This document shows positions 8,888 through 64,000 of a DNA stretch of 64,000 nucleotides, in pieces (the stretch's first letter is position 1; every line of letters starts with the position of its first letter). The DNA comes from Punctularia strigosozonata HHB-11173 SS5 (taxonomy: Eukaryota; Basidiomycota; Agaricomycetes; Corticiales; Punctulariaceae). The notes beneath the pieces are model-generated. The model was not told the origin of the DNA. It made no database searches and saw nothing but the letters and a program-made list of their open reading frames with translations. Location: positions 4,608,438 through 4,672,437 of the forward strand of contig NW_006767433.1 of the NCBI RefSeq assembly GCF_000264995.1. The letters are read 5' to 3'. Made by a program: the position numbers and the translations under genes.

Positions 8888-10630
8888 CTAGACTCCGCCT
8901 GCAAGTCCAGCATGGTGCTTCAAGGTCAGACTGTCCGAATCTACCCAGCCCGTCTCGGACCACCACACTCTCGGTACGATGGTATAGAGCTCCCTCACGA
9001 TCTCCCTCATAGTATGGCTCTGCATCCCATATACGTGCAGCGTCTCAATTCGCTCGCTCGACTTGCTCCGATTGCGCGCGTGGATCACGTCCCGAAGCGC
9101 GCGAAACAGTGGCTTCTTGTCCCTTTCGCCAAACTCAACCGCGAGCATCGTCAGCTTGGGGAGCAGCGCGCGGCGGGGTTTACGCCGCCTTTCCGAGTCC
9201 CGCGCAGGCTCTGCAGCGAGCGCGGACACGGCCTCTAGTGAGGTCGAAAGGAGCTCGAGGTGGACGAGCTCGGGCGCGGAGCGAAAGAGCGTGCCCCAGC
9301 GCGGGACCGGGCCGGGCACTTCGAGGTCGAGACGCCACGCGTCCGAGAAGGGCAGTCGACGGAGAACCTCTGACATGGCCGCGCTGCTGAGCGGGTCTGA
9401 CCCGAGGAAACAGGACAGCTCGCCGATGAGGTCCGCACGGTCTGGGCCGCACCAGGCGCGAATGGAGGCGCGGGCGTCGAGCGAGACGTCGAGCGCGTCT
9501 GAGGTACGTCCCGCGCGGCGCGCGTTCTCGAGGTGGTCGCGGAGGTAGGCGACCACGGAAAGGAAGGTGTCCTCTGACCAGTCAATTTGGCGGTCGGCGG
9601 CACCGCATTCGGCGACGAGCGTGCAGGTCGCGGGGAGGGAGAGTGCGGAGAGAAGGGCGTGGCACGCCTGGAGGTCGTCATCGACGCGGAGGAGGCGGAG
9701 GTGCGGCATGTATACTGGGGCGGCGGAGGCGGCGAGCGTGGCCCGTTCAAAAGCGTCGTGTCGGAAGAGGGTCTCGAGCAGGATAACGGTCTCAAGCGTG
9801 GGTGTGTTCCGGATAAGGTCCACGATGTCGAACGCGTTGCCGAACTCGGCGTCGGTGAGGTGAAGGTAGGTCAGAGATGGGAAGGCGGGTAAAGGCGGGT
9901 CGACAACAATATTATGAAGCCGAAGAGCGGTAAGGGAAAGGAGGGAGGCGGGCAGCCGTTCCAGAGTCGTGTCGAAGACGAGACTCGTGCAGCGGAGGTA
10001 ACATAGACTGACGTTGGGGATGAGGAGGAAGAGGTCGGGGAAGATAGGGCCTACGTCATCGAGTTCGCCGTGTATATGCACGGTGCGTATCCGGTGCCCA
10101 TGCTCGAGCAGGATGCGGCCTAGGACGCCACAGTCCCGAAGGAAACGATCGTGCTTTAGGCCATCACCGCGGATGACGACCTCGACCGCACTGGGATCTA
10201 CGACGTACAAGTCGAGGGGGACGTGTTGCGAACGCTCAATCGAGCGCTCCACCCATCGCGCGCAGGAGAAGTCGAGCCTGTCCCAGAGCGCCGCGCAGGC
10301 GAGCGCGGCGTAGCGCCATTTTCTGCACACGCGCGTGACGGCGGTCCAGCCATAGGAGACGGCGTGGTGCCCCGGTGGGTGGGAGCAGCGTAGGAAAAGA
10401 AAGATCTCGGCGAGGACCTCGGGAGGAAGCCTTCCGCACGGGCGAAGGTCGTTCTGGCGAATGCGGAGCAGACTGACGGCGTTCTCGAGCGTTTGTATCT
10501 CATGCTCAAGCTTTAAATAGCCTTCGGTGCTGGTTCGGGCATCTCTGAAGGGTGCTACGCGAGGGTCGCATGACAGGGTATCCGCCAGCGACTCGACATA
10601 AAGATCCAACGCGTCTGGGGCTGTATTCAT
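8888..10630 (-). CDS. F-box protein with leucine-rich C-terminal part, intronless
   Basis: A single 580-residue open frame starts at 10630. The N-terminus has a helical heptad-like stretch (LEHEIQTLENAVSLLRIRQN), then an F-box: GRLPPEVLAEIFLFLR, VTRVCRKWRYAALACAALW. The 'ALW..L.F' ending is typical of the F-box-like families expanded in Agaricomycetes. The rest is leucine-rich without clean LRR periodicity, for example SLTALRLHNIVVDPPLPAFP and SLTYLHLTDAEFGNAFDIV. It likely acts as an SCF substrate adaptor. GC content is high and several overlapping antisense frames are open, but only this strand carries motifs. It is convergent with the SOD gene, 279 bp away. Confidence 0.85.
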   Translation of the reverse strand: MNTAPDALDLYVESLADTLSCDPRVAPFRDARTSTEGYLKLEHEIQTLENAVSLLRIRQNDLRPCGRLPPEVLAEIFLFLRCSHPPGHHAVSYGWTAVTRVCRKWRYAALACAALWDRLDFSCARWVERSIERSQHVPLDLYVVDPSAVEVVIRGDGLKHDRFLRDCGVLGRILLEHGHRIRTVHIHGELDDVGPIFPDLFLLIPNVSLCYLRCTSLVFDTTLERLPASLLSLTALRLHNIVVDPPLPAFPSLTYLHLTDAEFGNAFDIVDLIRNTPTLETVILLETLFRHDAFERATLAASAAPVYMPHLRLLRVDDDLQACHALLSALSLPATCTLVAECGAADRQIDWSEDTFLSVVAYLRDHLENARRAGRTSDALDVSLDARASIRAWCGPDRADLIGELSCFLGSDPLSSAAMSEVLRRLPFSDAWRLDLEVPGPVPRWGTLFRSAPELVHLELLSTSLEAVSALAAEPARDSERRRKPRRALLPKLTMLAVEFGERDKKPLFRALRDVIHARNRSKSSERIETLHVYGMQSHTMREIVRELYTIVPRVWWSETGWVDSDSLTLKHHAGLAGGV

Positions 10631-11157
10631 GATCTCGTCTGTGCCGTCAACCTACGCGCGGGAATTGGCCGGTCTGTTTAGAGAGAGTGTGCCTAATATC
10701 GGAATGATCTCGACCGCTCACTGGCTAGTGCAGGGTATCGAGATGGGGATGGCTCTAAATGCGTATATTGGGCCCTCTTCTGGAAGCACCAAGTTCCACA
10801 ATTCCCCGATAACGCAGCGACTTCAGGTTCGTGTCCGGTGTATGAGTATCTTCGAGCTCAGGTTGGTCGGGAGAGTTGGTGATGACGGAAACCTTTGATT
10901 CCGAAAGCGCGGTGCGTTGAGTAAAGCAGGATTCGCTGCCCGGGTGAAAGAGCAGGGATGCTGTCGATCACATGCTTCACTGAACGCCCCAGTGGTGTCC
11001 TCGTTGTTAATTGATGTGTTGATTGTAACCCCATTCGCGCTCTGCAACGCTTCATCGGTTCCGTATCTGCGCCATGAGGGCATTGGTTTCTCCCTCGTAC
11101 TCGTCGATTAGCTGCGCGTGATGTGAAGGCGCATTTGGCTGCACTATACCCGACCTG
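10631..11157. other. Intergenic, no gene seen
   Basis: Contains the likely promoter of the minus-strand F-box gene. Short open frames have no recognisable content. Confidence 0.4.
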
Positions 11158-11773: not shown

Positions 11774-12618
11774 GACTGAAGGTCTGATTACGCCCACCCC
11801 CGCCCGGTAGATACAAGGATACGGGAAAAGTGCATGTCCGGACTCGTGTGTCGAAATAATGGGACTGTCACCGGACTCGAACCGAAGATACTTGTGATTC
11901 GGGAGGGGGATGGCGCTTATCGTTTGGACGAAGGGAGCGGGTAAGGTCTGATGGCCTAAGCTGGCTATATCATCAGATCCGCGGTTACATTTAGCTGCCA
12001 GTCTTCCGACTTCTTCTTGGGACTTGAAGCTGCGAAAGCACAGGTGGTACCGGCGATCTCCCGATGTTGTAGTACGGTAAGGCAAGCTGTACTGTACATG
12101 ACTCAGGACTCAGTTTGTCGTACTTTCGAAGTGCGATGTGATGCAGAAACGCTGCATGCTCTCTAGTTTAAGATTCGATTGTGGACATTGCGTGGCACGA
12201 GGACAATAGCGGATGGCTCAGGTGGAACTTTCCTGGGCCCATGGCAACTCAGTAACCGCCTGGGGGCGGCTCCGCTACTTATTCAGTCGACATACAGCTT
12301 CATTTACCAGATATTCTTCAGGCAGAGTTGTATTCGCCATGTCCAGCCACCACCCCTGTTACACTGCATAGTGTACCGTACGCGAGCGCGTGCGAATGAA
12401 TCACGGTCACATGACCCGCCAGAACAAAGGGCGCGGCGACGGTCCAGTGGCTTCGTGTTGTCGGTTTGACCCACAACCACAATCGCAGCCTTCTGAAGGA
12501 GTGGCCCTTACTTGCCCCCAGCGGTGTCACCGAACACAGGGCCACCAGTTGCTCCTACTATAATAATCGCAGTGAGCATCATGTTTTTCGCCGCCAGAGT
12601 CCAGCCGCTGACTTCGCC
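11774..12618. promoter_or_regulatory. Upstream region of the FunK1 gene, partly duplicated before the truncated copy
   Basis: No gene seen. The stretch about 12325-12425 (including gtgtaccgtacgcga and cggtcacatga) reappears at about 15540-15625 in front of the second FunK1 copy, so the duplication included the promoter. Confidence 0.5.
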
Positions 12619-14926
12619 ATGTCTTCTCGCAATGTCACTCCCCCCCCGCAACCCAGAGGACCATCAAGCGCCCCCGTCATCTATAACTCAACCCCTTGCA
12701 GCGCGAGCCGCTTCACCGGCGAATACACGCACTCTTCAACTAAAGCCATCACTAAAGCCGTCACAGTTCCTGCCATCTCTCACTCTCTCAAGGGAGCCAT
12801 GCTGGACAACGTCACTGAGCTTCTAGACGTCGTTTTTCCGAACTCTGAACTTCCTGTGCGCCTTGACCACGCACTTGCTTACGTCTCCGATCCTGAGAAC
12901 GGGTCTGACTGCCTCTATCGCGAAGGCCAATGGACTGGTTTTGCATCGCTGCCGGCTCATAATCCCCAGTCGCCAGGAGAACGTGAAGAAGCCGTTTCCC
13001 AACAGTTCAACGCTATTGCGGACGCTGTATCACGGTGTAAGGCCTTCCGCCCCTCTAAAGCCACCGTTCGTGCTTGGACGGGTCACTTCGCCACCAGGCC
13101 TTTAGGCGATACCAACCAACCGACCTTGGAGGCCTGCCAGAGGCAACCAGACGGCGTGTTACTACCTCAGGTCTACCGCGATCGTCCCGGTGACGCTCTC
13201 AGACAGGATGCTGTGGCGTTTTTGGAAGTCAAATCCGGTAAGGATGGCGCCACTCCGGAGACCAGCTCCGCGGGGGAGCTGAAGGAGAACGTTCGATTAG
13301 CCTTTGGCGCTCAGTACGACAGACGCTTTATCCTCGGGATCACCCTGGTTTCAGATTCAATGCGGCTCTGGCGTTTCGACAGGGCAGGAGTTCTGCAGTC
13401 GAGAGAGTTCAATATCCACGACAGTCCTGACGACTTTCTTCGCGTGGTGTGTGGGTTTGCCTTCGCCAACCGTGACACTCTCGGCTTCGATCCTACCGTC
13501 TCCGAACCCGATCTGTCTGGAGTTCGGACGATACAAGTCAAAAACAAGCGTTACAAGATACTGGACGTGTTGCATATGTCTGGCACTCTCAGAGGTCGAG
13601 GAACGATCATCCTCCGCGTACGCTCCGGGAAAAGAGCCATGTGTATCATCAAGGATTCGTGGGTCGATGTTAGTCGGCCAGAAAAGGAGTGTGAAATTCT
13701 GGAGCGCGCGTCCAAGGAAAAGATAGAAGGAATTGTGCACATGTTGACTCACGAGCGGGTCAGTTTTCACGGCGCGGTAGACTCGACGAAGACTATTCGC
13801 GAGAAGCTGCACATGGTCGAAAACGTGGACAAAAAGAGCGGTCGCGCGCCCGAGACGCGGGAGCACTATCGCCTTGTTCTGGAAGAATCGGGACTTTCTT
13901 TGCGCCACTTCGCTACCCGTCGAGAGTTGCTCAGTGTCTTGATAGACGCCGTCGAAGGTGAGCAGCGTCTAGATCTTAGGCGTTCGTAGATATCTGATGG
14001 GATCGTCTGTAGCTCATCGTCGAATGTACGAAGATCTTGGCGTGTTGCATCGTGACATCAGCTTCCGCAACATATTGATATTGGACGCCGAAGATGACAC
14101 AGAGAAGAAACAAGAGGAAGAGCGTCCAGGTCGCCTAATTGATTTTGATTACTCCAAGACCATGAATCGACCCACCGATAACGATCCGGAGGAACACAAA
14201 AATCATCGTTCCGTGAGTTATACGTATCGTCTGTGAATCGTTTCTCTAACATCGACGTTCGCACAGGGAACGTTGCCATTCATGTCGTTTCACCTTCTTG
14301 CCAGCGAGACGCCAATCGAGCCAGAGGTGCACCATGATCTAGAATCATTTTTTTACGTCCTCATTTGGGCGTGTATCGTGCTCCAAGGACCGGGACGCTA
14401 CAGAGAACCGTTCGACGCCATGGCAACCGCGTTGCGTGGTTGGCTCTCCGGAAACAGGGAGCAGGATATCGCAGATGCGAAGTTTGCTCAAATGGTCCTT
14501 CCAAACTCTTTCGAACGGCTGCTGTCGGACTTCCACCCATACTTCAATCCCTTGAAGCCCACACTCAGGGCGCTCAGGACCGCACTCAAAGTCAACCAAT
14601 GGGAGGACCCCAATGGGGAGCGCTCGACATACGACGAATTTCTCGCTGCGCTCAGGTCTGGTCGCGATGCTTTACCTCTCGTTGATGACCCGCCACCGAT
14701 GGCCGGGCCTGTGGTTGTGGACCAGCGCCGTCCTCGGAGACAGGCAGCCGTCCGCAGTCACACAACGCTTTCCTCGATGGCTTCCTCGAGAGGTCAGAAA
14801 CGCAGTCGCCAGGAGATGGAAGACGAAGATGAAGCAACTTCAGCGCATCAGAAACCCGGTTACCGCAGCAGCAACCATAACGCGGGCTCGATTGGCACCT
14901 CCCTATCGGGAAAGAGGCGCAAGTAA
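12619..14926 (+). CDS. FunK1-type protein kinase
   Basis: Three exons (12619-13957, 14013-14212, 14267-14926) give about 730 residues; both introns (55 and 54 nt) join in phase. The N-terminal half holds a FunK1-type region with DAVAFLEVKS and RRFILGITLVSDSMRLWRFD. An ATP-lobe-like part follows (GRGTIILRVRSGKRAMCIIK, the final Lys as likely VAIK-type lysine). The catalytic loop is GVLHRDISFRNILIL, and the metal motif is LIDFDYSK, i.e. DFD in place of DFG as usual in FunK1. The C-lobe contains EVHHDLESFFYVLIWACI. The C-terminal tail is basic and acidic mixed (GQKRSRQEMEDEDEA, SGKRRK) and may be a nuclear localisation signal. FunK1 kinases are a multicellular-fungus family of unknown substrate. 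A degraded tandem copy follows. Confidence 0.9.
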
Positions 14927-18648: not shown

Positions 18649-18978
18649 NNNNNNNNNNNNNNNNNNNNNNNNNNNNNNNNNNNNNNNNNNNNNNNNNNNN
18701 NNNNNNNNNNNNNNNNNNNNNNNNNNNNNNNNNNNNNNNNNNNNNNNNNNNNNNNNNNNNNNNNNNNNNNNNNNNNNNNNNNNNNNNNNNNNNNNNNNNN
18801 NNNNNNNNNNNNNNNNNNNNNNNNNNNNNNNNNNNNNNNNNNNNNNNNNNNNNNNNNNNNNNNNNNNNNNNNNNNNNNNNNNNNNNNNNNNNNNNNNNNN
18901 NNNNNNNNNNNNNNNNNNNNNNNNNNNNNNNNNNNNNNNNNNNNNNNNNNNNNNNNNNNNNNNNNNNNNNNNNNNNNN
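18649..18978. other. Assembly gap (330 N)
   Basis: Run of undetermined bases. It sits inside the repeat, at a point where two nearly identical copies would confuse assembly. Confidence 0.99.
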
Positions 18979-34193: not shown

Positions 34194-36181
34194 CTAACTT
34201 CCGCCACTGGCACCGGAGCTGGCCTCAGCACTGGACGAATCCGCGGCGGTGAGGTCTCCTTCCGAGTCCGACGAACCATCCTTGCGAGTTCGCGCCTCAG
34301 CCGCTGCTTGCCCCTCCTCCGGATCTTTCGCGGAGGTCTCGTTCGGCTGACCGCTCTCGACTTTCGCAGGCTCACTTGGCGAGCGATGAGCCGAATCCTC
34401 GTCGGCTGCGTTCGTCGTCTTATCCGATATTCCGGCATCCGCCAGTTCGGCGGTTATAGGCTTGACCGGAGCTTCCCTCTCCTTGCTTTCCCGCTCCCAT
34501 GACACGCCCAAGCCAGCACCTTCGCGTTTGCGTCGGCTGGCGATCGCAAGCGGCATCGCAGTGGACTGGGGAGAAAGCGGAACGGCTGGGGCCGGTGGAG
34601 GCGGAGGCGGGGGCGGGAGGAGAGGGTTGGCTGCCGCTGCCGCACCCGAGAGGAAGTCCAACCAGTTAGGCGCATGGCCCGATGATGACGCACCTATATC
34701 AAGACGATGAGCACAATGCGGTTGCATAGGAAGGAAGATACGTGCTGTGTTGAGAGTGATGCTGCTGCGTTTGGTAAGTCTGCACGGGTGGTGGGGGAGG
34801 GGGAGGTCCACTTCCGTGCACAGGCCATTCGAAGGCTGCGTCACCCGACGAAGACGAGTTGATGGTCTGACTATACACGTGCACCGGCTGATGCTGATGC
34901 GGTTGCGCAGGCATGCGCGGCGGGTACGGGGGGTAGGCCGCGCTGTTAGAGTAGCCGTCGTCCATGCCGGACCTGCCGGGCGGGTACGAGTAACTATAGC
35001 TCTGTGGCTGCGAGTGCGAGTAAGGATCATTGACATCGGCGTAGCCTTGACCGTACGGGGGCGGCGGCGGGGGGTGAATGTACGACCTTTGGAGAGGCTG
35101 ATGCAACGTTGGAGGTGATAACGTTGGCCCCAAGTTGGTGCTGTCGATCCGCGGACGCTTCGCTGCGGGCATCCCACGCTCGCCTGACACAGGCAGAGTT
35201 GATGATGGTTTATTATAGTCACCCTGCGAGAGTAAGAGATTAGCGACCCTGAATGCTCGGCATAGGACGGGAACTTGCCTCGATCGAGACGGGTGTCGAT
35301 TTCTTCCCGGACGCTGCGCTTGACTTGGACGGCTTCGTTTTGATAGCGGGCTCCTTGCGTTTCTGTGAGGATGGCTTGGGGGTTCCCTCGTCATCGTCGC
35401 CCTCGCCATCGTCGTCATCGCCCATATCATCACCTCTTGCACCGTTGAAGTCGGCGGGGGTCTTTAAATCCCTCTCGCCTTCGAACTGGTACGGAGGATC
35501 ATCGTCAGTGTGCAACTGGAGCTCGGCACTAGTGCCCACGCACATGGATCTGGCGCCTAACCACGTCTTGTATGTCTCCCGAGCAGTACTGGTACAATCG
35601 GAGCCCATGTCCAGGGCGATCTTCTGTATGAAGGACCACGTCATCAGCGACATCGGCTGCGTGGATGTCTGCCGTACGCGCTCACCGAAGACGATGACGG
35701 CGACATCGACAGAGCACAACACACCGAGCTCGTATGCTTTTTTGAACAGGCCGTTCTTGCGCTGTTCGGATGATGATGAGTTATAATAAGCACACGGGTC
35801 GTGCCAAGCCAGGAATTGGGACAAAAATAGGGCAATATGTCAGGGCAGGTTATTTTGGACCAGCATGGCTTTTTACGACATCGTGACCATGAGCTCAACC
35901 GCGTCCGACGGTCCAAGGAAGGCGGAGGGGACGGGAAGCGGGGATAGAGGAAGAGGGTAGGCCACTGGCTCACCTTGATAAACGTCACGGAACGATTGCG
36001 TTCATGCTGTCGGAGGATCGCCATAACTCATTAGCACGTTTTTCATCGCTTTATATTGCTCCAAGATGCAAGAGGACAACAGCGCGAAAACGGAATACAT
36101 TTGGTCTACGGTTTGACGAAGAAAACAGGGCGGCTTCGTGCTCACCGTAATGGGTTGAATCTCGATCTTTCTACGCCCCAT
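34194..36181 (-). CDS. MADS-box transcription factor, Rlm1/MEF2 type
   Basis: Three exons assemble the MADS box. Exon 1 (36181-36146) gives MGRRKIEIQPIT, exon 2 (36006-35974) gives HERNRSVTFIK, and the next gives [20 protein letters not shown] and AVIVFGE. The continuing exon has [19 protein letters not shown], an acidic stretch, then basic Lys/Ser/Pro sequence. The long C-terminal part is Pro/Gln/His/Tyr-rich (PPPPPPYGQGY, QTQQHHSQHST), as in transactivation regions, with NWLDFLSGAAAAANPLLP and an acidic Ser-rich end at TAG 34196-34194. Rlm1-type factors act downstream of the cell-wall-integrity MAP kinase in fungi. A few internal splice sites in the C-terminal half are uncertain. A second gene of the same type lies at 42607-43921. 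Confidence 0.88.
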
Positions 36182-42606: not shown

Positions 42607-43921
42607 TCACCCGTTTTGGGCCTCCGCGCGATGTTCACGCAACAAGTTCGAAGGTTCTGGGGATGATGTTCCTCCTTCAGTGCGTGTGCTCGACATCGCT
42701 ACATCTCCATCGGAGGTTTTGGGCTCGGCACAGATCACCTCGAGCCAACTCTGACGACGGCCACTTCCACTGGCGGCAAGTGGTGAACTCCGCTCTGCCG
42801 ACATCAGCGATATCAGTCCAATGACCACCAAGGAATCTCTGAAAAAACGTACGAGCCTGCTTCATCGATTCGGGGAATGTATCCGGTTCGAATAACGCGC
42901 CGGTACTCGAACTGTTGTTAGTGCGCGAAGGCGACCTCGGAGATTGATAGCGAGCAGACGATGCGCGGTGACGCTGGTCCCCTGATGATACAAGCGGCAG
43001 CCCGGAAGCACCACGCGGCCGTAACCCTGTTGAGTCTGATACGCTGCCGGAGCTTGAGGGAGGCGCGTATGCATAAGGATGTGGTGGATGATGCATGGCA
43101 TGCGCGGGCCGTGAGCCGAATGCCAATCCAGCAGAGACATTGGTAGGGTGATGATATTCCCTCCGCGGTGGATATGGATCATTTGGACGGCGACGCTTCG
43201 GTGAGGGTGAAGCTTGACGAGGAGCAGCAAAGGAAGAGGAGGCGTGCCGGACACTATCACCTGGTTGACCCTGTGAACGATTCAGGAACAGCGCCAGACG
43301 GGGAGACAGTGTTGCTAGAAAGACACCTTCACATACCGGAACACCAGCGTGATCCGAGATTCTGCGCAATCTTGCATGCCCTAGGTTTCCGTTCTGTACG
43401 TCGTCTTTATCCTCCTCGCTTGCGCCCGCGTCATGTTGACCGCCGTTGAAGTCTGCCGGTGTCTTAAGGTCCGCTTCTCCACGGAACTAGAGCCTTTGAG
43501 TGTGAACTGTGCTAGGGTGTGTCGCACCATGACACTCACAGCCAATCGCCGTTGCGTTAACGTGTCGATGTCATCGGAACAATACTGAAAGAGTCTTGTA
43601 CCATGGCCGGGTCGATTTTCTGAAAGATCCCGTCAGCATTGTGTACGCAAGGTGAGGTGACCTATGATAGTACCAAATATGATGACTGCAATCTCCACCG
43701 AACAAAGCACGCCTAACTCATATGCCTTCTTCAGTAGACCCGATTTGCGCTGATGCCCGAGTTAACATCAAGATATAGGGTTGTTGGAGAACCCAACCTT
43801 GACGAATGTGATAGCACGATTGCGCTCGTTCTACAAGAGGACGAAGGTAAAGGTGGCTGGAGAAGAAACGCGTTGATGACGCAACTGGGATCGGCTGTAT
43901 CTCAATCTTCTTTCTCCCCAT
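42607..43921 (-). CDS. Second MADS-box factor, Rlm1/MEF2 type (shorter paralogue)
   Basis: The MADS box assembles from [12 protein letters not shown] (from 43921), [11 protein letters not shown] and [20 protein letters not shown] with AVIIFG. The next exon includes [15 protein letters not shown] later exon carries [17 protein letters not shown], matching the [13 protein letters not shown] of the gene at 34194. The C-terminal part is basic and Pro/Ser/His-rich ([20 protein letters not shown]) and ends [14 protein letters not shown] with TGA at 42609-42607, after a short intron near 42810-42775. It is about half the coding length of its neighbour. All key DNA-binding residues of the MADS box are present, so I read it as functional. 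The last short intron (about 34 nt) is unusual and weakens the end of the model. Confidence 0.75.
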
Positions 43922-45042: not shown

Positions 45043-46600
45043 CTATAATATACCGGAGTCACGGAGTGCATTCTTAAAGATGGACTCCTTAACGGCGGTA
45101 AACACGATGCGCACGTTCGCCGTGTCAGTCGCTTGAGTAAGATGCGGGAAGACGGTCAGCTTCGCCCTGTTGACCTGCATGAATCGCCAGTAGATATATT
45201 TTGCCGCCTTGTTGATGTCCGATCCGCCTTTGTACTCGGGAAAATAAACGTTCAGGGGCACCTTTGGCAACTTTTTCTTGAAAACGTCAATCTTATTCAT
45301 GAAGAGTACGATAGACGTCCGAAGGAACCAGCGAGAGTTGACGATGGATTCGAAAAGTTGCAAGGATTCCACCAGCCGATTCTGGAGGCCCACGAGCCTT
45401 AGTACCACGACGGGAAAAGACGACGAGAGAAGGATCGTAGTGCACTCGCCTGTTTCATGTCCTCTAGTAACACTTGGTCGTACTCGCTGAGAGCGACGCA
45501 GAAGATGATGCTCGTCACACTTTCGAAGCAGTGTATCCACTTCTTCCGTTCTGATCGCTGACCGCCAACATCGAACATGTGTATTCTTTATGAAACTAGA
45601 TGAGTGATGGTGGCGACGTGATCGATGGACCAACGTACGTCGCACCGCCCATGTGAAATCGAGTCTCCACGACGGACGTGCTCTTCGCACGAGCACGTAA
45701 GACGTCAGTTTCGTCAGGGACGTAATCACTTGAACCTATACGTAATGCGGATTTGAGGAAGCTAGAGAGTAGGTTAAGCTTTATAATGGCACGTTTAGAA
45801 GAGAACATACTGTGTCGCGTTATCCATGAGGTAGTACTGAGAGCGTTGCTCGAGCACGCGTTCTATAGCAGGGTCCTGACGCGACAAATCAGTGGTCTGC
45901 CTCTTCTGCGGCGGCGAACACCGTACCTGCCACACATGATGTATAGCACGAGCCATTTGAGGAGGTAGTTGAATCATTGCGGATCGAGATGATGAGGACA
46001 ATGGCTCAGGCCTGCGACGGAGGGCTCAGTCTTGCAATGGAATGGTGGGAGACAGCCTTACATCGCTATGAGACATGAATCAGGAACGGGAAGTTCATAT
46101 GCGGCAATCGCCTTCGCGTGAGCCTAAGGCACCTTGCAGTGAGAGAGAGACAACTATGGGGTAAGAAGTACGAACGGTGTTTTCAGGATGGGTACATTGT
46201 ATGTGGAAGGTGTCCATAGCTCGTACGAGAGCCTGCGCGGAGTCAATGAGGTTCCGGTAGATGATAGGCTGTGCGAGATGAGGCACACGACTTCAATCCA
46301 ACACTAATAGTCGTACCTTGTATGCCTCCAGTTCGTCCTGAGTGAACCCGTTCTGATGTATGATCTTCATCTGCTTGACGATCGTCGTCTTTCCCGACTC
46401 GCCGGATCCTACGAGCGCTGAACGTGAACCCTCTACGGGCGATCCGAGTCACAACATGCCACACCAAGTAGCAGAATCTTGCATTCTCGTTTAAACTGTT
46501 TTCCGTCTTGCTCGAGCTGCTTGTCGATAGCTCGCGAGCGCGCTTTGGCTGCGGACGAGGACGATGCCTGCGAGTTGGACCTCGAGAGGGAGTTGCCCAT
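45043..46600 (-). CDS. Heterotrimeric G-protein alpha subunit
   Basis: Starts [20 protein letters not shown] (Gly2 and Ser6 fit N-myristoylation; there is no Cys3 for palmitoylation). The P-loop is rebuilt across an intron as [20 protein letters not shown]. The helical domain includes [20 protein letters not shown]. Switch I reads [20 protein letters not shown], where the usual ...KTTGI... Gly is Ser (codon complement 45676-45674). Switch II is intact: [24 protein letters not shown] and TQAT give base recognition, and the C-terminus is [11 protein letters not shown]. It transduces receptor signals at the plasma membrane, in basidiomycetes often pheromone or nutrient signals. The lack of a C-terminal CGLY-type motif puts it outside the Gi-like class. 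Complete gene with at least six introns. Confidence 0.93.
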
Positions 46601-53011: not shown

Positions 53012-53459
53012 CTGAGAAGTCTGGTATAATACAAAGCAAGCCCACAGACGACTTGGGGCACATAAACAAGCCAATTTATGGAAATTCGACAGAGGCGTTG
53101 CTCATTGTTCAGTCGCCGGAGGCCACGGTGAGCAGGGGCCACGCCTGGCGTCGCATCCCCGGCATTTTTGACCAGGCAACCCGTGCGTGAGATTGCGAGA
53201 GCTGACAGATTCATGCGAGTGAAAGGTCAGGCGTGCAACGGCGCAGTCCGTACGAGCGAAAAGGCCCCAGTCGTTCACCTCAAGTAGAGCTGGCAGAATC
53301 GCTACGGGTGGCTGCACTCCTGTATCTATCACATGACATTCCAATGTTACCCTGCAGCACCGCGCTGCCGTCTGGACGAAGCTGGGTACCCAGACATCGG
53401 CCTCTCGACCAACAACCGGGACGATAAGTAGAATCTCTCTGCAATATCGCATCTCTGCC
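53012..53459. promoter_or_regulatory. Divergent promoter between acidic protein gene and F-box gene
   Basis: 448 bp between divergent start codons; no gene seen, no clear TATA box. Confidence 0.4.
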
Positions 53460-55349
53460 ATGACATGCGATACTGTCCCCAGTGGTAACGGCCAACCATC
53501 GAAGGAAGCAGCGGTGGCCCGCCTTATAGCAGCAGGTGAGCTCCGATTGTCCTCGCGTTGCTTCACGGCATGCTCACAGGCTCTTGCTACAAAAGATGCC
53601 GAATTTCGCTTGCATGTCAATGCAATGAGCGCAGACGAGGTGGATAGACATGTAGAAAGGCTCGCTGAAACAGTGCGAACACTCAGATCCCGCCGCAACG
53701 AGCTCGTCCCCATATCCAAACTGCCGTCAGAGCTACTGCTGGAAATCTTCTTGAACCTCCCGGAACGTACTGCTGGAAGGCAACCTCGGCATATCTGGCT
53801 CCAACATGCAGAACGTTTGACCGTCACACACGTATGCCAGTCATGGCGCGCCCTCAGCACCAGCTCCGCAGCTTTATGGACGAATCCCTCTTTCGAACTC
53901 CATCCATCATTGACAGCAGAACTACTACGCAGGTCGCAGGGTGCGCTGCTAAATCTGCAGCTGGATCGCAATCATTCACGAAGGAAACGTCCATCGCCTC
54001 TCATCCCTGCCGCCTTTGCAGAAACGAAGCGGATACGCGCGATTGATATCTCAGGCGATCTGGCACTGTTCGACCGCATACTACCTTCACTGAAGCAGCC
54101 TTTTTGGCCTGTTCTCGAGGAGATACGAGTTTCCTGGCGCGGTCCTGGCTACGGGGAATTGGATAGTTTGTCCGAGTCCGCGATGCCGCGTCTAAGACGC
54201 CTCTCCCTAGATTGTATCAGACTTCCTTTACATTCCAGTCTTTTTGGGGACTTAACCGCGCTCTCCATGGAGAATCATACCGGGAATATTGTCGCTGAAC
54301 GGGTGCTCCCGAGGCTCTCGTGGGTCGATCTGGAGTCGCTACTCGAACGTTCGAGTCGCCTACGCCGGCTTCATCTAACAAATCATCTCCCCCTTGAGAA
54401 ACCACCTCGATTCATCACTCTCGTATTGAACAACCTCAGGTGGCTCACGGTGAACGACCAGACGGAGTCCCTGACACACTTCCTCTCGTGCCTCTCCGCA
54501 CCCGCCTTGCGGTCGCGCAAGTTTACCGTTCATAAGGCCGATGGCCATTTGGGTGACCCTGAAGACAATCATCGTTTGGCCGATGAAGCTCAAGTTGCCG
54601 ATATCATCACTGTTCTTACCGAACACCTAACCGCTTACCCTACAATACGGATCAAGGAAGCTTACCTGGGCTTGCCCGACATCGAGATCCGCGGATGGTC
54701 CTCTGGAATGCGCGACAATCCAGAGATTTCGTTGAAGATCGACTGCTTCCACCGCGACCCCATATGTCTGCGGGAGCACGTCGAGACCGTGAGGCCGCTC
54801 ATAGCTCTGCCGTTCCTCGCCGACATCACCCGCTTGATCTTCAAGCCCGAGATAGGCATTTCCTACCAACCCGACTGGGCGATCAACGTCGACTTCTTGC
54901 CACTGTTGCAGATACACCCGCATGTGAAAATGCTCCAGATCGGAAATGTGCTATCCTCAGATTCCGAGGATTCGCCCTACAATCTCATTGCCGGTAACCT
55001 TGCCGCATTGAACACCGTTTTCCAGGCTCTCCATACTCCGGACGCATATGGTTCCGTCCCGTATCCAGATCTCCAGGAGATTGTCCTGGAGGACGTGAAA
55101 ATCGGTCCCGTGCGCGGTGCTCCCGTCTGGGCGCATGATCACCTGCCTCTGGAAGGCTATGTGACCGACATCGCAGATTGTCTGTCTGAGAGGGCGAAGA
55201 TGGGACATCCGGTGGCGCGGCTCCTAATGAGAAGCTGTGTTGGTGTATCGGAAGAAATTATAACGCGACTCCGAGGGACTGCATGCACAGTAGATTGGGA
55301 TGGGCAGGGAGCTGCACGGCAGGACGAAGACGAGTTGACCGATTGGTGA
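53460..55349 (+). CDS. F-box protein with leucine-rich C-terminal part, intronless
   Basis: A 629-residue single frame from ATG 53460 to TGA 55349. The N-terminal helix includes VDRHVERLAETVRTLRSRRN, then the F-box: LPSELLLEIFLNLPERT, VTHVCQSWRALSTSSAALW. The rest is leucine-rich (RLSLDCIRLPLHSSLFGDLT, RLRRLHLTNHLPLEKPPRFI) and ends in an acidic tail. The 'helix plus F-box plus ALW' arrangement is the same type as the genes at 8888-10630 and 59610-61287, yet the C-terminal halves differ strongly. An internal Met at 53623 is an alternative start. Likely SCF ubiquitin-ligase adaptor of unknown target. Confidence 0.85.
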   Translation: MTCDTVPSGNGQPSKEAAVARLIAAGELRLSSRCFTACSQALATKDAEFRLHVNAMSADEVDRHVERLAETVRTLRSRRNELVPISKLPSELLLEIFLNLPERTAGRQPRHIWLQHAERLTVTHVCQSWRALSTSSAALWTNPSFELHPSLTAELLRRSQGALLNLQLDRNHSRRKRPSPLIPAAFAETKRIRAIDISGDLALFDRILPSLKQPFWPVLEEIRVSWRGPGYGELDSLSESAMPRLRRLSLDCIRLPLHSSLFGDLTALSMENHTGNIVAERVLPRLSWVDLESLLERSSRLRRLHLTNHLPLEKPPRFITLVLNNLRWLTVNDQTESLTHFLSCLSAPALRSRKFTVHKADGHLGDPEDNHRLADEAQVADIITVLTEHLTAYPTIRIKEAYLGLPDIEIRGWSSGMRDNPEISLKIDCFHRDPICLREHVETVRPLIALPFLADITRLIFKPEIGISYQPDWAINVDFLPLLQIHPHVKMLQIGNVLSSDSEDSPYNLIAGNLAALNTVFQALHTPDAYGSVPYPDLQEIVLEDVKIGPVRGAPVWAHDHLPLEGYVTDIADCLSERAKMGHPVARLLMRSCVGVSEEIITRLRGTACTVDWDGQGAARQDEDELTDW

Positions 55350-59609: not shown

Positions 59610-61287
59610 TCATAAGCAAGAAAGTGGGAGATGCTCTACTGTCTCCGCTAAAGCATCTAGGGCATCGGCGACATCAGGAGTGACGCTTGCTGCGCTCTCC
59701 CTGACAAGCAACCTCCGCAGCGTAGAGCCTGCCTTGCCGTGAGCCTCCTTCCACGGCCTGAGCCTGCTCGGAAGCATGGAGGAAGATTCCAAAGAGATGT
59801 CTAGCGTGTGCAAGCTGGCCAATAACGGCTCCAGGCCCTCACCGGTGGGCAGTTCCAGCGCACCTATCAGTCCCCTCCCCGCTGCGTCACTGACTCGCAA
59901 GGTTTGCACGCCACGCAGCTGAGATATCAGGAGTAGCCAGTCTTGCACATCCATCGCGCGCTCCGCAACGAAGGTCTCGAGACCGCTGCCGAAGGCTCGG
60001 AGGGCGAGCATCGGGGCGAGCTTGACGTCGGTCTGTAGGGAAAGGGAAAGGGCGGGGTTCGCGCGCAAAGCTGCGAAAGTGCCGGAAAGCCAACCGTGGA
60101 TTCGAAGGCTGCCCTGCGCGTCCTTTCCATCGAAGAGACCAAAAGCCAGTAGGGGTTTGCCTCGCATGTAGTGTGAATTGAGAGCGGATAGGAGATGGTC
60201 GAGAGCGCTTAGGCCAGTGGTAGTTGTGCAAGAAATGCTAGCGTCCGGAGGAAGGATGAGCAAACTGAGGAGGGCGGTGCAGGACTCGACGGCGTCGGTT
60301 ACGCGCAACGAGCGCAGCGCCGGCATGTTAATAGAGACGTCTGCTTCCATGTCTTCCAGACCTTGAGCGGCGAAGGCCGGCAGAATGTGCTCCAAAGAAA
60401 GGGAGGCAAGTCCAGAGTTGTTGAGCAGCAGGTCCATGAGGCCCTGCGTGGACATGCGCGATGCAGACGGACTCTGTGACAGCGCCAGCTGGGTGAGGCC
60501 GTAAAAGTGGCGCGACCCCTCTGCGAAGCGACAGCCGTGTAGCGCGAGCGAGGACAACTTCGGTGCGCGGCCATCGAAAAGGGCGTCTGGGAGTTCGTAC
60601 GTCGTTCGGGAGCCCATCGGAAGTTCCATGTGCAGCTCGAGGCTGGCGATGATGGGGGCGGGGGCAGAGAGCGCGGGTATCAGCTGCTCCATCTGTCTCG
60701 GGCGGAGGCTGAGGGTGGCATGGTGCGTCCGCGCGAGATTGTCGGCGAAGAAGCTCTGTGCGGACGAGACAATGCCCGATGCAACAAGGTCGGAGCGAAT
60801 AGTGAGTGGAACGAGCGCAGCGCGTTGCTGAGCACGCAACCTCGATCGAGCGTTGAGGAGGTCTATACGATTCCAGAGAAGGGGTGCGCCAAGCGCAACC
60901 TGGCGCCACTGGTGGCAAACCTGGGTGAGCGCGACCCAGGCATCGGGAGAGGTGGAAGCACAGAGATCGCGGCAAGCGAAAAAGATATGGAGAAGAATTT
61001 CGGGAGGGAGGCGCGTGATGGATGCGAGAGTGTTGCGAGAACGGCGCAGGTGAAGGAGCGCATCCTGAGTGCTTGCGAGCAGGTTTGCTATGGTACTGTC
61101 TATGTTGCACCGGGCGGCATCGGCGAAGGGGTGACTGGTGAGAACGTTGGCGGTAAGCTGCTTTTCGGCGAGGAGGCCGTCATTGAGGATAGCCGTAATA
61201 CGCGAGCTGTATCACACGACACGTTCAGTATAACTAAAGGAAGAGAAATACGTGAATGACGCACCTGACGGCCTCTAAGGATGTCAT
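59610..61287 (-). CDS. F-box protein with leucine-rich C-terminal part
   Basis: A 23-nt start exon (61287-61265, MTSLEAV plus AG) splices over a 58-nt intron to a long exon from 61206. It reads TAILNDGLLAEKQLTANVL, then the F-box: RLPPEILLHIFFACRDL, LTQVCHQWRQVALGAPLLWN. The frame runs on uninterrupted through the leucine-rich part (ALRSLRVTDAVESCTALLSL, GLETFVAERAMDVQDWLLLI) to the stop at 59612-59610. Without the first exon the frame lacks a Met near the F-box, so a scan for single ORFs would cut the gene short at about 60839. About 540 residues. It is the same F-box type as the genes at 8888 and 53460, with little obvious C-terminal similarity. Confidence 0.8.
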
Positions 61288-63187: not shown

Positions 63188-63740
63188 CCCTACCCCTGTC
63201 CCAGCCAGGAGGTCAGGCTGACCTCCGGGCGTCTCAGTTTTGGATGTTTGGGGTGTCAGTGCATAGCCCCAGAAGTACTGAATCCAGAACTGTTCTCGCA
63301 CCTCACTTTATATTGGTAGTCGTTCCGTAATTCATCATATCCTCCTAAAACGGTGAGAAGGGCCTGGAGGATTATCCAGCGATCAAATTCCCACGGTTAG
63401 TATGTCAAAAAATCATGTTCTCCAAGCCGCTCCCACTGGTTATTTTTTCAGGATTTTAGAAGGCTCTCAAATTGCAGTATTCGTCAAACAATCGGTTTTT
63501 TAAATCGAAAGAAATGATGCTCATAATTCACCGTCCGTTTTTCACGACGGTTCCCAACTGAATCGCTACTCACCGTCTGACAACGCCTCTTCGTAACTAT
63601 GACGGGCACCTCCATGAATATTCTGGCGATTTAAGGCGCTGTGGGCATATCTCCACTAATATTTTGGTGGAGATGTCGCCGGGAGGATTGCTCGCCGCCA
63701 CCGTGACCGTGGGACTCCGGCGAGCTCGGCAGGGGGTCTG
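63188..63740. other. Intergenic, short palindrome, no gene seen
   Basis: Contains the palindromic ggaggtcaggctgacctcc at 63208-63226 and AT-rich sequence near 63470-63540. No DUF6589 continuation recognised. Confidence 0.5.
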
Positions 63741-64000
63741 AACGCGCGTCGTGACACTGCCACGGTGAACGTGGGACACGGCTTGCGCGGCAAACGCGCG
63801 TCGTAGCACCGCCACGGTGAACGTGGGACCCGGTCTGTTCGGCGCCACGCGCGGCAAGGCACTGCCACGGTGAGCGACGCGCGTCGTGACACCGCCACGG
63901 TGAACGTGGGACCCGGCCCGCTCGGCAAACGCGCGTCGTTACACCGCCACGGTGAGCCATGCGAGGCACGTGCCGCATCGCCACGGTGAGCCACGCGCGT
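63741..64000. repeat. GC-rich minisatellite
   Basis: The core gccacggtga occurs at 63759, 63811, 63864, 63894, 63946 and 63980. Three spacings are 52-53 bp and two shorter ones are 30-34 bp. Full units read cgcgcgtcgtgacaccgcc then acggtgaacgtgggacccgg. A diverged unit lies at about 63690. The array continues to the window end. Confidence 0.85.

What the first reader, a model, noticed from the sequence alone, without database searches (positions are those of the whole stretch)
45674..45676. G alpha subunit with a natural Ser at the RGS-resistance glycine
Switch I reads R-A-K-S-T-S-V where almost all G alpha subunits have R-V-K-T-T-G-I. The Gly replaced here corresponds to Gly183 of G alpha i1, Gly184 of G alpha o and Gly302 of yeast Gpa1. 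Changing that Gly to Ser is the classic mutation that blocks RGS proteins. The catalytic Arg, DVGGQ, NKxD and P-loop are intact, so the protein should still bind and hydrolyse GTP but escape RGS control. The Mg-contacting Thr is also Ser.
Basis: partly seen in the sequence, partly recalled or inferred. Interest (0 to 1): 0.7.

Follow-up and report, generated by a model that had tools for sequence, protein, structure and literature searches.

The report
Naturally RGS-resistant-looking fungal G-alpha duplicate
A fungal genome carries a second, well-preserved copy of a signalling G protein with the same single-residue change that laboratories use to make G proteins ignore their off-switch proteins, although this has not been tested biochemically.

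Summary
Window 45674-45676 is a TCC Ser codon (minus strand) in exon 7 of an intact 9-exon, 376-aa G alpha gene (46600-45043), at the position of G alpha i1 Gly183. TCC is at least two substitutions from every Gly codon, so one miscalled base cannot explain it. All 12 other G alpha loci found in this genome keep Gly. The nearest paralog (L015, 67% identical) reads RAKSTGISET. So Ser at the Mg-contacting Thr is shared by the pair; only Gly->Ser is private. The protein looks constrained: pairwise dN/dS about 0.09-0.15, branch as short as the sister's. It also lacks the N-terminal palmitoylation Cys that 4 of 4 classical comparators show. The genome has RGS domains at 3 loci, one a DEP-RGS with both key Asn residues. 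Best reading: a functional paralog, cAMP-branch by recall, largely blind to RGS and weakly anchored. RGS blindness is inferred from engineered mutants elsewhere. No other fungal genome could be searched, so whether the Ser is fixed across species is open.

The parts
46465..46600 (-). exon 1 of the G alpha gene: start codon, MGNSLS myristoylation-type N-terminus without the palmitoylation Cys, to LLLG
   Evidence: aligned with MGNCVS of the sister gene
46317..46408 (-). exon 2: P-loop GSGESGKT to EAYK
   Evidence: same exon length (92) in the sister
46176..46268 (-). exon 3: PIIYRNL...PENT
   Evidence: same exon length (93) in the sister
46062..46123 (-). exon 4: [20 protein letters not shown], helical domain
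   Evidence: same length (62) and similar sequence in the sister
45927..46011 (-). exon 5: MPEPL...HHVWQ, with a helical-domain insert also seen in the sister
45811..45875 (-). exon 6: DPAIERV...DNAT
   Evidence: 65 in both
45639..45761 (-). exon 7: switch [16 protein letters not shown]
   Evidence: 123 in both
45674..45676 (-). Ser207 codon TCC at the position of G alpha i1 Gly183; sister has GGC (Gly)
45450..45585 (-). exon 8: switch [19 protein letters not shown] and start of switch III; followed by a GC donor (cag|GCGAGT)
   Evidence: (136 in both)
45043..45381 (-). exon 9: NKID, TQATDT and C-terminus ALRDSGIL, stop codon
   Evidence: the sister has one more intron in this part (120 + 219 = 339 coding bases in both)

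Best explanation
The gene is a functional second copy of the fungal G alpha whose sister in this genome (L015) reads RAKSTGISET and ends in DSGIL; from recall this is the group III, adenylyl-cyclase branch (Ustilago Gpa3 / Cryptococcus Gpa1 type). Relative to the sister, this copy has serine for the switch-I glycine and serine for the N-terminal cysteine, while the GTP-binding and catalytic residues and the receptor-coupling tail are kept. The serine side chain is expected to clash with the RGS domain on the transition-state surface of switch I, so RGS proteins would not speed GTP hydrolysis. The subunit would still switch off by its own slow GTPase. Signals through this copy would therefore last longer than through the RGS-controlled sister, and the protein would sit on membranes less firmly (myristoyl and beta-gamma only). 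Shown here: residue, gene integrity, paralogy, constraint, absence of the Cys, presence of RGS domains. Inferred: loss of RGS action, slower shut-off, looser anchoring, cAMP output.
For: The 9-exon gene is open and intact; exons 2, 3, 4, 6, 7 and 8 (92, 93, 62, 65, 123, 136 bases) match the sister's lengths. Gly->Ser is private: 12 of 12 other G alpha loci keep Gly. The codon differs from the sister's GGC at two bases and from the other Gly codons at three. Constraint: 244 of 365 aligned residues identical, NG86 dN 0.27 and dS 1.87, ML dN 0.24 and dS 2.61; branch lengths 0.27 (window) and 0.29 (sister), pair support 0.996. In 301 columns filled in six classical G alphas the window protein is the lone deviant in 6, the sister in 3, the other four in 2-7; two of the 6 are G207S and I208V. 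Switch II is identical to G alpha o through [18 protein letters not shown]. RGS domains match at 3 loci; one is a DEP-RGS with EEN and ELNID, the two Asn positions aligned with RGS2/RGS16. Engineered Gly->Ser mutants are described as RGS-insensitive in a fungus (PMC3248559, passages) and in mammals (PMC7572916, passages).
Against: No assay, expression or population data. No orthologs from other species could be fetched, so fixation is unknown. Two splice donors are weak or non-canonical (intron 1 GTGTGG, intron 8 GC). dS is near saturation, so dN/dS is rough and averages the time before and after any recent change. The window protein has twice the sister's lone deviations (6 against 3). The private Ser sits beside neighbours that also differ from the sister (Val208, Val209), which could compensate. 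In PMC3248559 (passages) MoMagA, which I recall as the group III subunit, bound only one of the RGS proteins tested (MoRgs7) in yeast two-hybrid, so RGS control of this branch may be limited anyway.
Confidence: 0.6

Rival explanations
1. The Ser is tolerated: RGS proteins of this fungus still act on this copy, through compensating changes in switch I (Val208, Val209) or in the RGS, so the substitution has little effect on signalling.
For: Thr206 (the RGS pivot, recalled) and switch II are kept. The neighbours of the Ser also differ from the sister.
Against: The same substitution is described as RGS-insensitive in a fungal and in several mammalian G alphas (passages). The DEP-RGS keeps the usual contact Asn residues, so a canonical binding mode is expected.
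Confidence: 0.2
2. The copy is a decaying or barely used duplicate; Gly->Ser and the lost Cys are early steps of relaxed constraint.
For: Weak intron 1 donor and GC donor in intron 8; two differences at functional positions in one copy; 6 lone deviations against the sister's 3.
Against: No stop or frameshift in 376 codons. The branch is not longer than the sister's (0.27 versus 0.29), and 6 of 301 is within the range of the other five sequences (2-7). GC3 0.61 is close to the sister's 0.64.
Confidence: 0.14
3. RGS control is irrelevant for this branch: the pair is shut off by intrinsic GTPase or by a non-RGS GAP, so the Gly was free to change.
For: Most other G alphas of this genome lack the pivot Thr next to the Gly (Leu, Val or Ile in 9 of 12), so RGS control may be limited to a few subunits. 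In Magnaporthe, MoMagA bound only MoRgs7 in yeast two-hybrid, although the same passages cite an earlier report of MoRgs1-MoMagA interaction (PMC3248559, passages); that MoMagA is the group III member is recalled.
Against: All 12 still keep Gly, so the Gly appears constrained regardless. The sister keeps both Thr and Gly.
Confidence: 0.12
4. Sequencing, assembly or gene-model artefact.
For: A single assembly only; no reads available.
Against: Two or more base changes are needed from any Gly codon, the codon lies 35 bases inside an exon, and the frame is open on both sides. Neither C-to-U nor A-to-I editing would turn TCC into a Gly codon (genetic code).
Confidence: 0.03

Closest known systems
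Engineered RGS-insensitive G alphas (G alpha i1 G183S, G alpha o/i2 G184S, G alpha q G188S, Magnaporthe MagB G183S; yeast Gpa1 G302S recalled)
   Same: Gly->Ser at the same switch-I position, with catalytic Arg, Gln and switch II kept
   Different: Here the Ser is natural, in a duplicated gene, next to Ser at the Mg position, and with no N-terminal Cys; RGS insensitivity untested
Sister gene in the same genome (contig C24, L015, 368 aa)
   Same: 67% identity, six exons of equal length, GKT P-loop, KST switch I, helical insert, DSGIL tail
   Different: Sister has Gly at the switch-I site, MGNC N-terminus, one extra intron in the last part, all nine donors GT
Fungal group III (adenylyl-cyclase branch) G alpha: Ustilago Gpa3, Cryptococcus Gpa1, yeast Gpa2 (recalled, not fetched)
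   Same: From recall: KST/KTT-G switch I, SGIL-type tail, N-terminal MGxC
   Different: Window copy lacks the Gly and the Cys
Transducin-type G alpha without N-terminal palmitoylation Cys (recalled)
   Same: Myristoylation site but no Cys3/Cys4
   Different: Different lineage; transducin keeps the switch-I Gly (recalled)

Membership tests
Heterotrimeric G protein alpha subunit (PF00503) | Full-length match above the curated cut-off | tested here: met
   421 bits, cut-off 48.8, profile 2-333 of 333
Heterotrimeric G protein alpha subunit (PF00503) | P-loop, catalytic Arg, DVGGQ, NKxD, TxAT boxes | tested here: met
   GSGESGKT, R202, DVGGQ, NKID, TQATDT; P-loop GKT rather than GKS
RGS-insensitive G alpha (Gly->Ser type) | Ser at the position of G alpha i1 Gly183 | tested here: met
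   TCC at 45674-45676; aligned with a solved G alpha o chain
RGS-insensitive G alpha (Gly->Ser type) | No GAP stimulation or binding by RGS proteins | not testable with these tools
   needs protein
RGS-insensitive G alpha (Gly->Ser type) | Intrinsic GTPase and receptor coupling kept | not testable with these tools
   catalytic residues and tail kept; no assay
Fungal group III (cAMP branch) G alpha | Clusters with named group III proteins of other fungi | not tested
   no fungal sequences available; only pairing with L015 shown (support 0.996); group name from recall
Dually acylated G alpha | Myristoylation Gly2 and a Cys within residues 3-4 | tested here: not met
   MGNSLS: Gly2 and Ser6 present, no Cys before residue 40. 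The 4 classical comparators show it at the nearest MGxxxS start (L009 MGCVQS, L011 and L013 MGACLS, L015 MGNCVS)

The most novel reading that the evidence does not exclude
The fungus evolved a matched pair of G alphas with the same receptor tail but different clocks. One copy is palmitoylated and shut off quickly by RGS. The other is RGS-blind and only lightly anchored, so one receptor class could give both a brief and a long-lasting, more mobile signal. The RGS-insensitive knock-in of pharmacology would then exist as a natural, maintained gene.
Probability: 0.33. Interest if true: 0.65.

Novelty: new variant of a known kind. Interest (0 to 1): 0.47.

Why it matters
The Gly->Ser change is the standard tool for asking what RGS proteins do in cells. 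A natural, maintained paralog with that change, beside a sister that lacks it, would be a ready-made comparison of RGS-controlled and RGS-free signalling from one receptor class. It would also show that escape from RGS is a usable evolutionary route after G alpha duplication.

Tried and rejected
Sequencing error and gene-model error were considered and set aside: at least two substitutions are needed from any Gly codon, and the reading frame around the codon is open. A recent segmental duplication with the neighbours was looked at: in about 9.9 kb fetched on each side of the sister, no ORF of 150 aa or more looked like the MADS-type gene next to the window gene (by eye, first 200 aa of each ORF). 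Part of L026 reads N and MADS exons can be shorter than 150 aa, so this is weak.

Searches that led nowhere: relatives in viral contigs (600 pattern matches, none confirmed) and in prokaryote genomes (263 pattern matches, none confirmed). Paper searches aimed at a natural RGS-insensitive G alpha: one search listed 4 papers, none, none, one search listed 5, and one search listed 15 of 286. Judged from titles and the starts of abstracts, none of those listed reports one; of these I opened only PMC3285607 and PMC7572916, by passages. The library lacks most subscription journals, so this is not proof of absence. Two mushroom papers opened by passages (PMC9030616; PMC8161036) gave nothing on this residue. 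Structure prediction was not requested, because the tool asks for a letter-for-letter translation and this protein is spliced from nine exons.

Weak points of my own counts: the anchored alignment used tblastn pieces for the eleven loci other than the window and L015, and some pieces run into introns or are spurious (L013 around 263-287, L011 around 168-177), so those rows' deviation counts are unreliable. In one search the N-terminal pattern also hit one divergent locus (L012, MGLIHS, without Cys, not confirmed as its start) and none in the other seven divergent loci. One search failed (file name) and was repeated as part.

Full report
Observation. The stretch 45674-45676 was read on both strands. 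On the minus strand it is the codon TCC (Ser) in ...CGT GCT CGT GCG AAG AGC ACG TCC GTC GTG GAG ACT... = [12 protein letters not shown]. I built the whole gene: nine exons between 46600 and 45043 on the minus strand, introns of 48-68 bases, 376 aa. Seven of the eight introns have GT donors; intron 8 has a GC donor (cag|GCGAGT), and intron 1 a weak GT donor (GTGTGG). The Ser is residue 207. Pfam G-alpha matches end to end with 421 bits. Arg202, DVGGQ, NKID and TQATDT are in place; the P-loop is GSGESGKT.

Is it more than chance or error? TCC is two substitutions from GGC and three from the other Gly codons, and the sister has GGC. One miscalled base cannot explain it. The codon lies 35 bases inside exon 7, so it does not depend on a splice choice. 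A search of the own genome with PF00503 gave 36 matches. I grouped these by eye into 14 loci, the window gene included, and fetched them. One (L021) is Arf-like by eye and was left out. Of the 12 that remain besides the window gene, all 12 have Gly at this position (L009-L018 and L020; L019). Counts of large families in that search are lower bounds, as the tool states.

What it is. The closest relative in the genome is on contig C24 (L015): 368 aa, 10 exons, 244 of 365 aligned residues identical, exons 2, 3, 4, 6, 7 and 8 of identical length. A query-anchored tree of 14 sequences (13 G alphas of this genome and a solved G alpha o chain) pairs the two with support 0.996. The sister reads RAKSTGISET. 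So the Ser at the Mg-contacting position, and the Thr in the P-loop, belong to the pair and not to the window gene alone; the two Mg-binding hydroxyl residues (identified from recall) are reciprocally exchanged, Ser/Thr to Thr/Ser, in both. That the pair is the fungal group III (cAMP) branch rests on recall of other fungal sequences, not on a search. One locus with the class III cyclase domain, a Ric8 locus and a G gamma locus match in the genome.

Constraint. NG86 gives dN 0.27 and dS 1.87; ML gives 0.24 and 2.61; YN00 failed. dN/dS is thus about 0.09-0.15, with dS near saturation. Branch lengths are 0.27 (window) and 0.29 (sister). Among 301 columns with a letter in six classical G alphas (window, L015, L009, L011, L013, G alpha o), the window protein is the single deviant in 6 (S175N, Y178H, G207S, I208V, L292M, Y342F), the sister in 3, L009 in 6, L011 in 5, L013 in 7 and G alpha o in 2. 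This does not look like general decay, though the window has twice the sister's count. Caveat: some rows contain pieces read into introns (L013, L011), which makes their counts unreliable.

A second difference. The window protein begins MGNSLS; the sister begins MGNCVS. At the nearest MGxxxS start the other three classical G alphas begin MGCVQS (L009), MGACLS (L011) and MGACLS (L013) (their full gene models were not built). So 4 of 4 classical comparators carry a Cys at residue 3 or 4, and the window protein has none before residue 40. For the eight divergent G alphas the same pattern gave one unconfirmed candidate without Cys (L012, MGLIHS) and none in seven, so they say nothing firm. From established knowledge of G alphas, the Gly2/Ser6 pattern predicts myristoylation, and the missing Cys predicts no palmitoyl anchor there. 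The C-terminal DSGIL is identical in the pair, which suggests the same receptors.

RGS side. PF00615 matches three loci. L023 carries RGS and DEP in one open frame; in the six-frame DEP search its DEP scored below the cut-off (28.1 bits), in the protein scan above it (35.3 against 32.7). Its RGS box has FCEEN and SELNID, aligned with the same stretches of RGS2 and RGS16; from recall these hold the Asn88 and Asn128 of RGS4 that embrace switch I. L024 carries PXA in one open frame and RGS in the next. L025 carries an RGS match with hydrophobic stretches after it (by eye). So there is RGS machinery to escape from.

Mechanism. From the literature, Gly->Ser at this position is used as an RGS-insensitive allele: conidiation was reported increased with MoMAGB G183S in Magnaporthe (PMC3248559, passages), and RGS-insensitive or GAP-deficient mutations prolonged response recovery in cells (PMC7572916, passages). 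PMC3285607 (passages) notes consistent behaviour of such point mutations across G alphas. That the intrinsic GTPase is kept in these mutants is recalled. Against a simple picture, the same Magnaporthe passages report that MoMagA (recalled as the group III subunit) bound only MoRgs7 in yeast two-hybrid, while citing an earlier report of binding to MoRgs1. Applying the mutant data here gives a subunit that is switched on by the same receptors as its sister, hydrolyses GTP at its own slow rate, and is not sped up by RGS. Steps shown: sequence, gene integrity, paralogy, constraint, missing Cys, presence of RGS domains. Steps inferred: RGS blindness, duration, localisation, cAMP output. The odds given for the rivals overlap, since tolerance of the Ser and irrelevance of RGS could hold together.

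Limits. No orthologs could be fetched: the viral-contig scan had 600 pattern matches and 0 confirmed; the prokaryote-genome scan had 263 and 0. For comparison, a paper on the mushroom Flammulina filiformis counts four G alpha genes there (PMC9030616, passages), against 13 loci found here. Paper searches showed no report of a natural Gly->Ser G alpha in the titles and abstract starts listed, but most subscription journals are missing and one search was cut at 15 of 286.

Verdict. Real, well supported as a sequence feature, and a plausible natural counterpart of a classic laboratory mutant. Its function is untested, and the evolutionary depth is unknown.

Noticed in passing
46317-46408 and 45639-45761 (window); L015 2205-2296 and 1470-1592: Both members of the pair have GKT in the P-loop and KST in switch I, so the two Mg-binding hydroxyl residues (Ser and Thr in G alpha o and L009) are exchanged for Thr and Ser.
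   Followed up: partly
46600 (window exon 1): Ser in place of the N-terminal palmitoylation Cys (MGNS), unlike the four classical comparators of this genome.
   Followed up: yes
45449 (start of intron 8): GC-AG intron (cag|GCGAGT) where the sister has a GT donor.
   Followed up: partly
L010, L012, L014, L016-L020: Eight further, divergent G alpha loci; 7 of these 8, and also L011 and L013, have Val, Leu or Ile in place of the RGS pivot Thr, while all keep the Gly.
   Followed up: partly
35240-35839 and 43633-43761, minus strand: Two MADS-box (SRF-TF) genes about 8 kb apart; perhaps a local duplicate pair.
   Followed up: no
8888-10651, 53337-55349, 59610-61211: Three F-box-like protein genes in the window.
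   Followed up: no
12415-13989: Fungal protein kinase (PF17667) gene.
   Followed up: no
63741-63903: GC-rich tandem repeats (period 52, 2.5 copies; period 30, 1.9 copies) close to the contig end, which coincides with the window end; no telomere-type repeat seen by eye in 63400-64000.
   Followed up: partly
18649-18978: Run of N (masked or gap) in the window.
   Followed up: no
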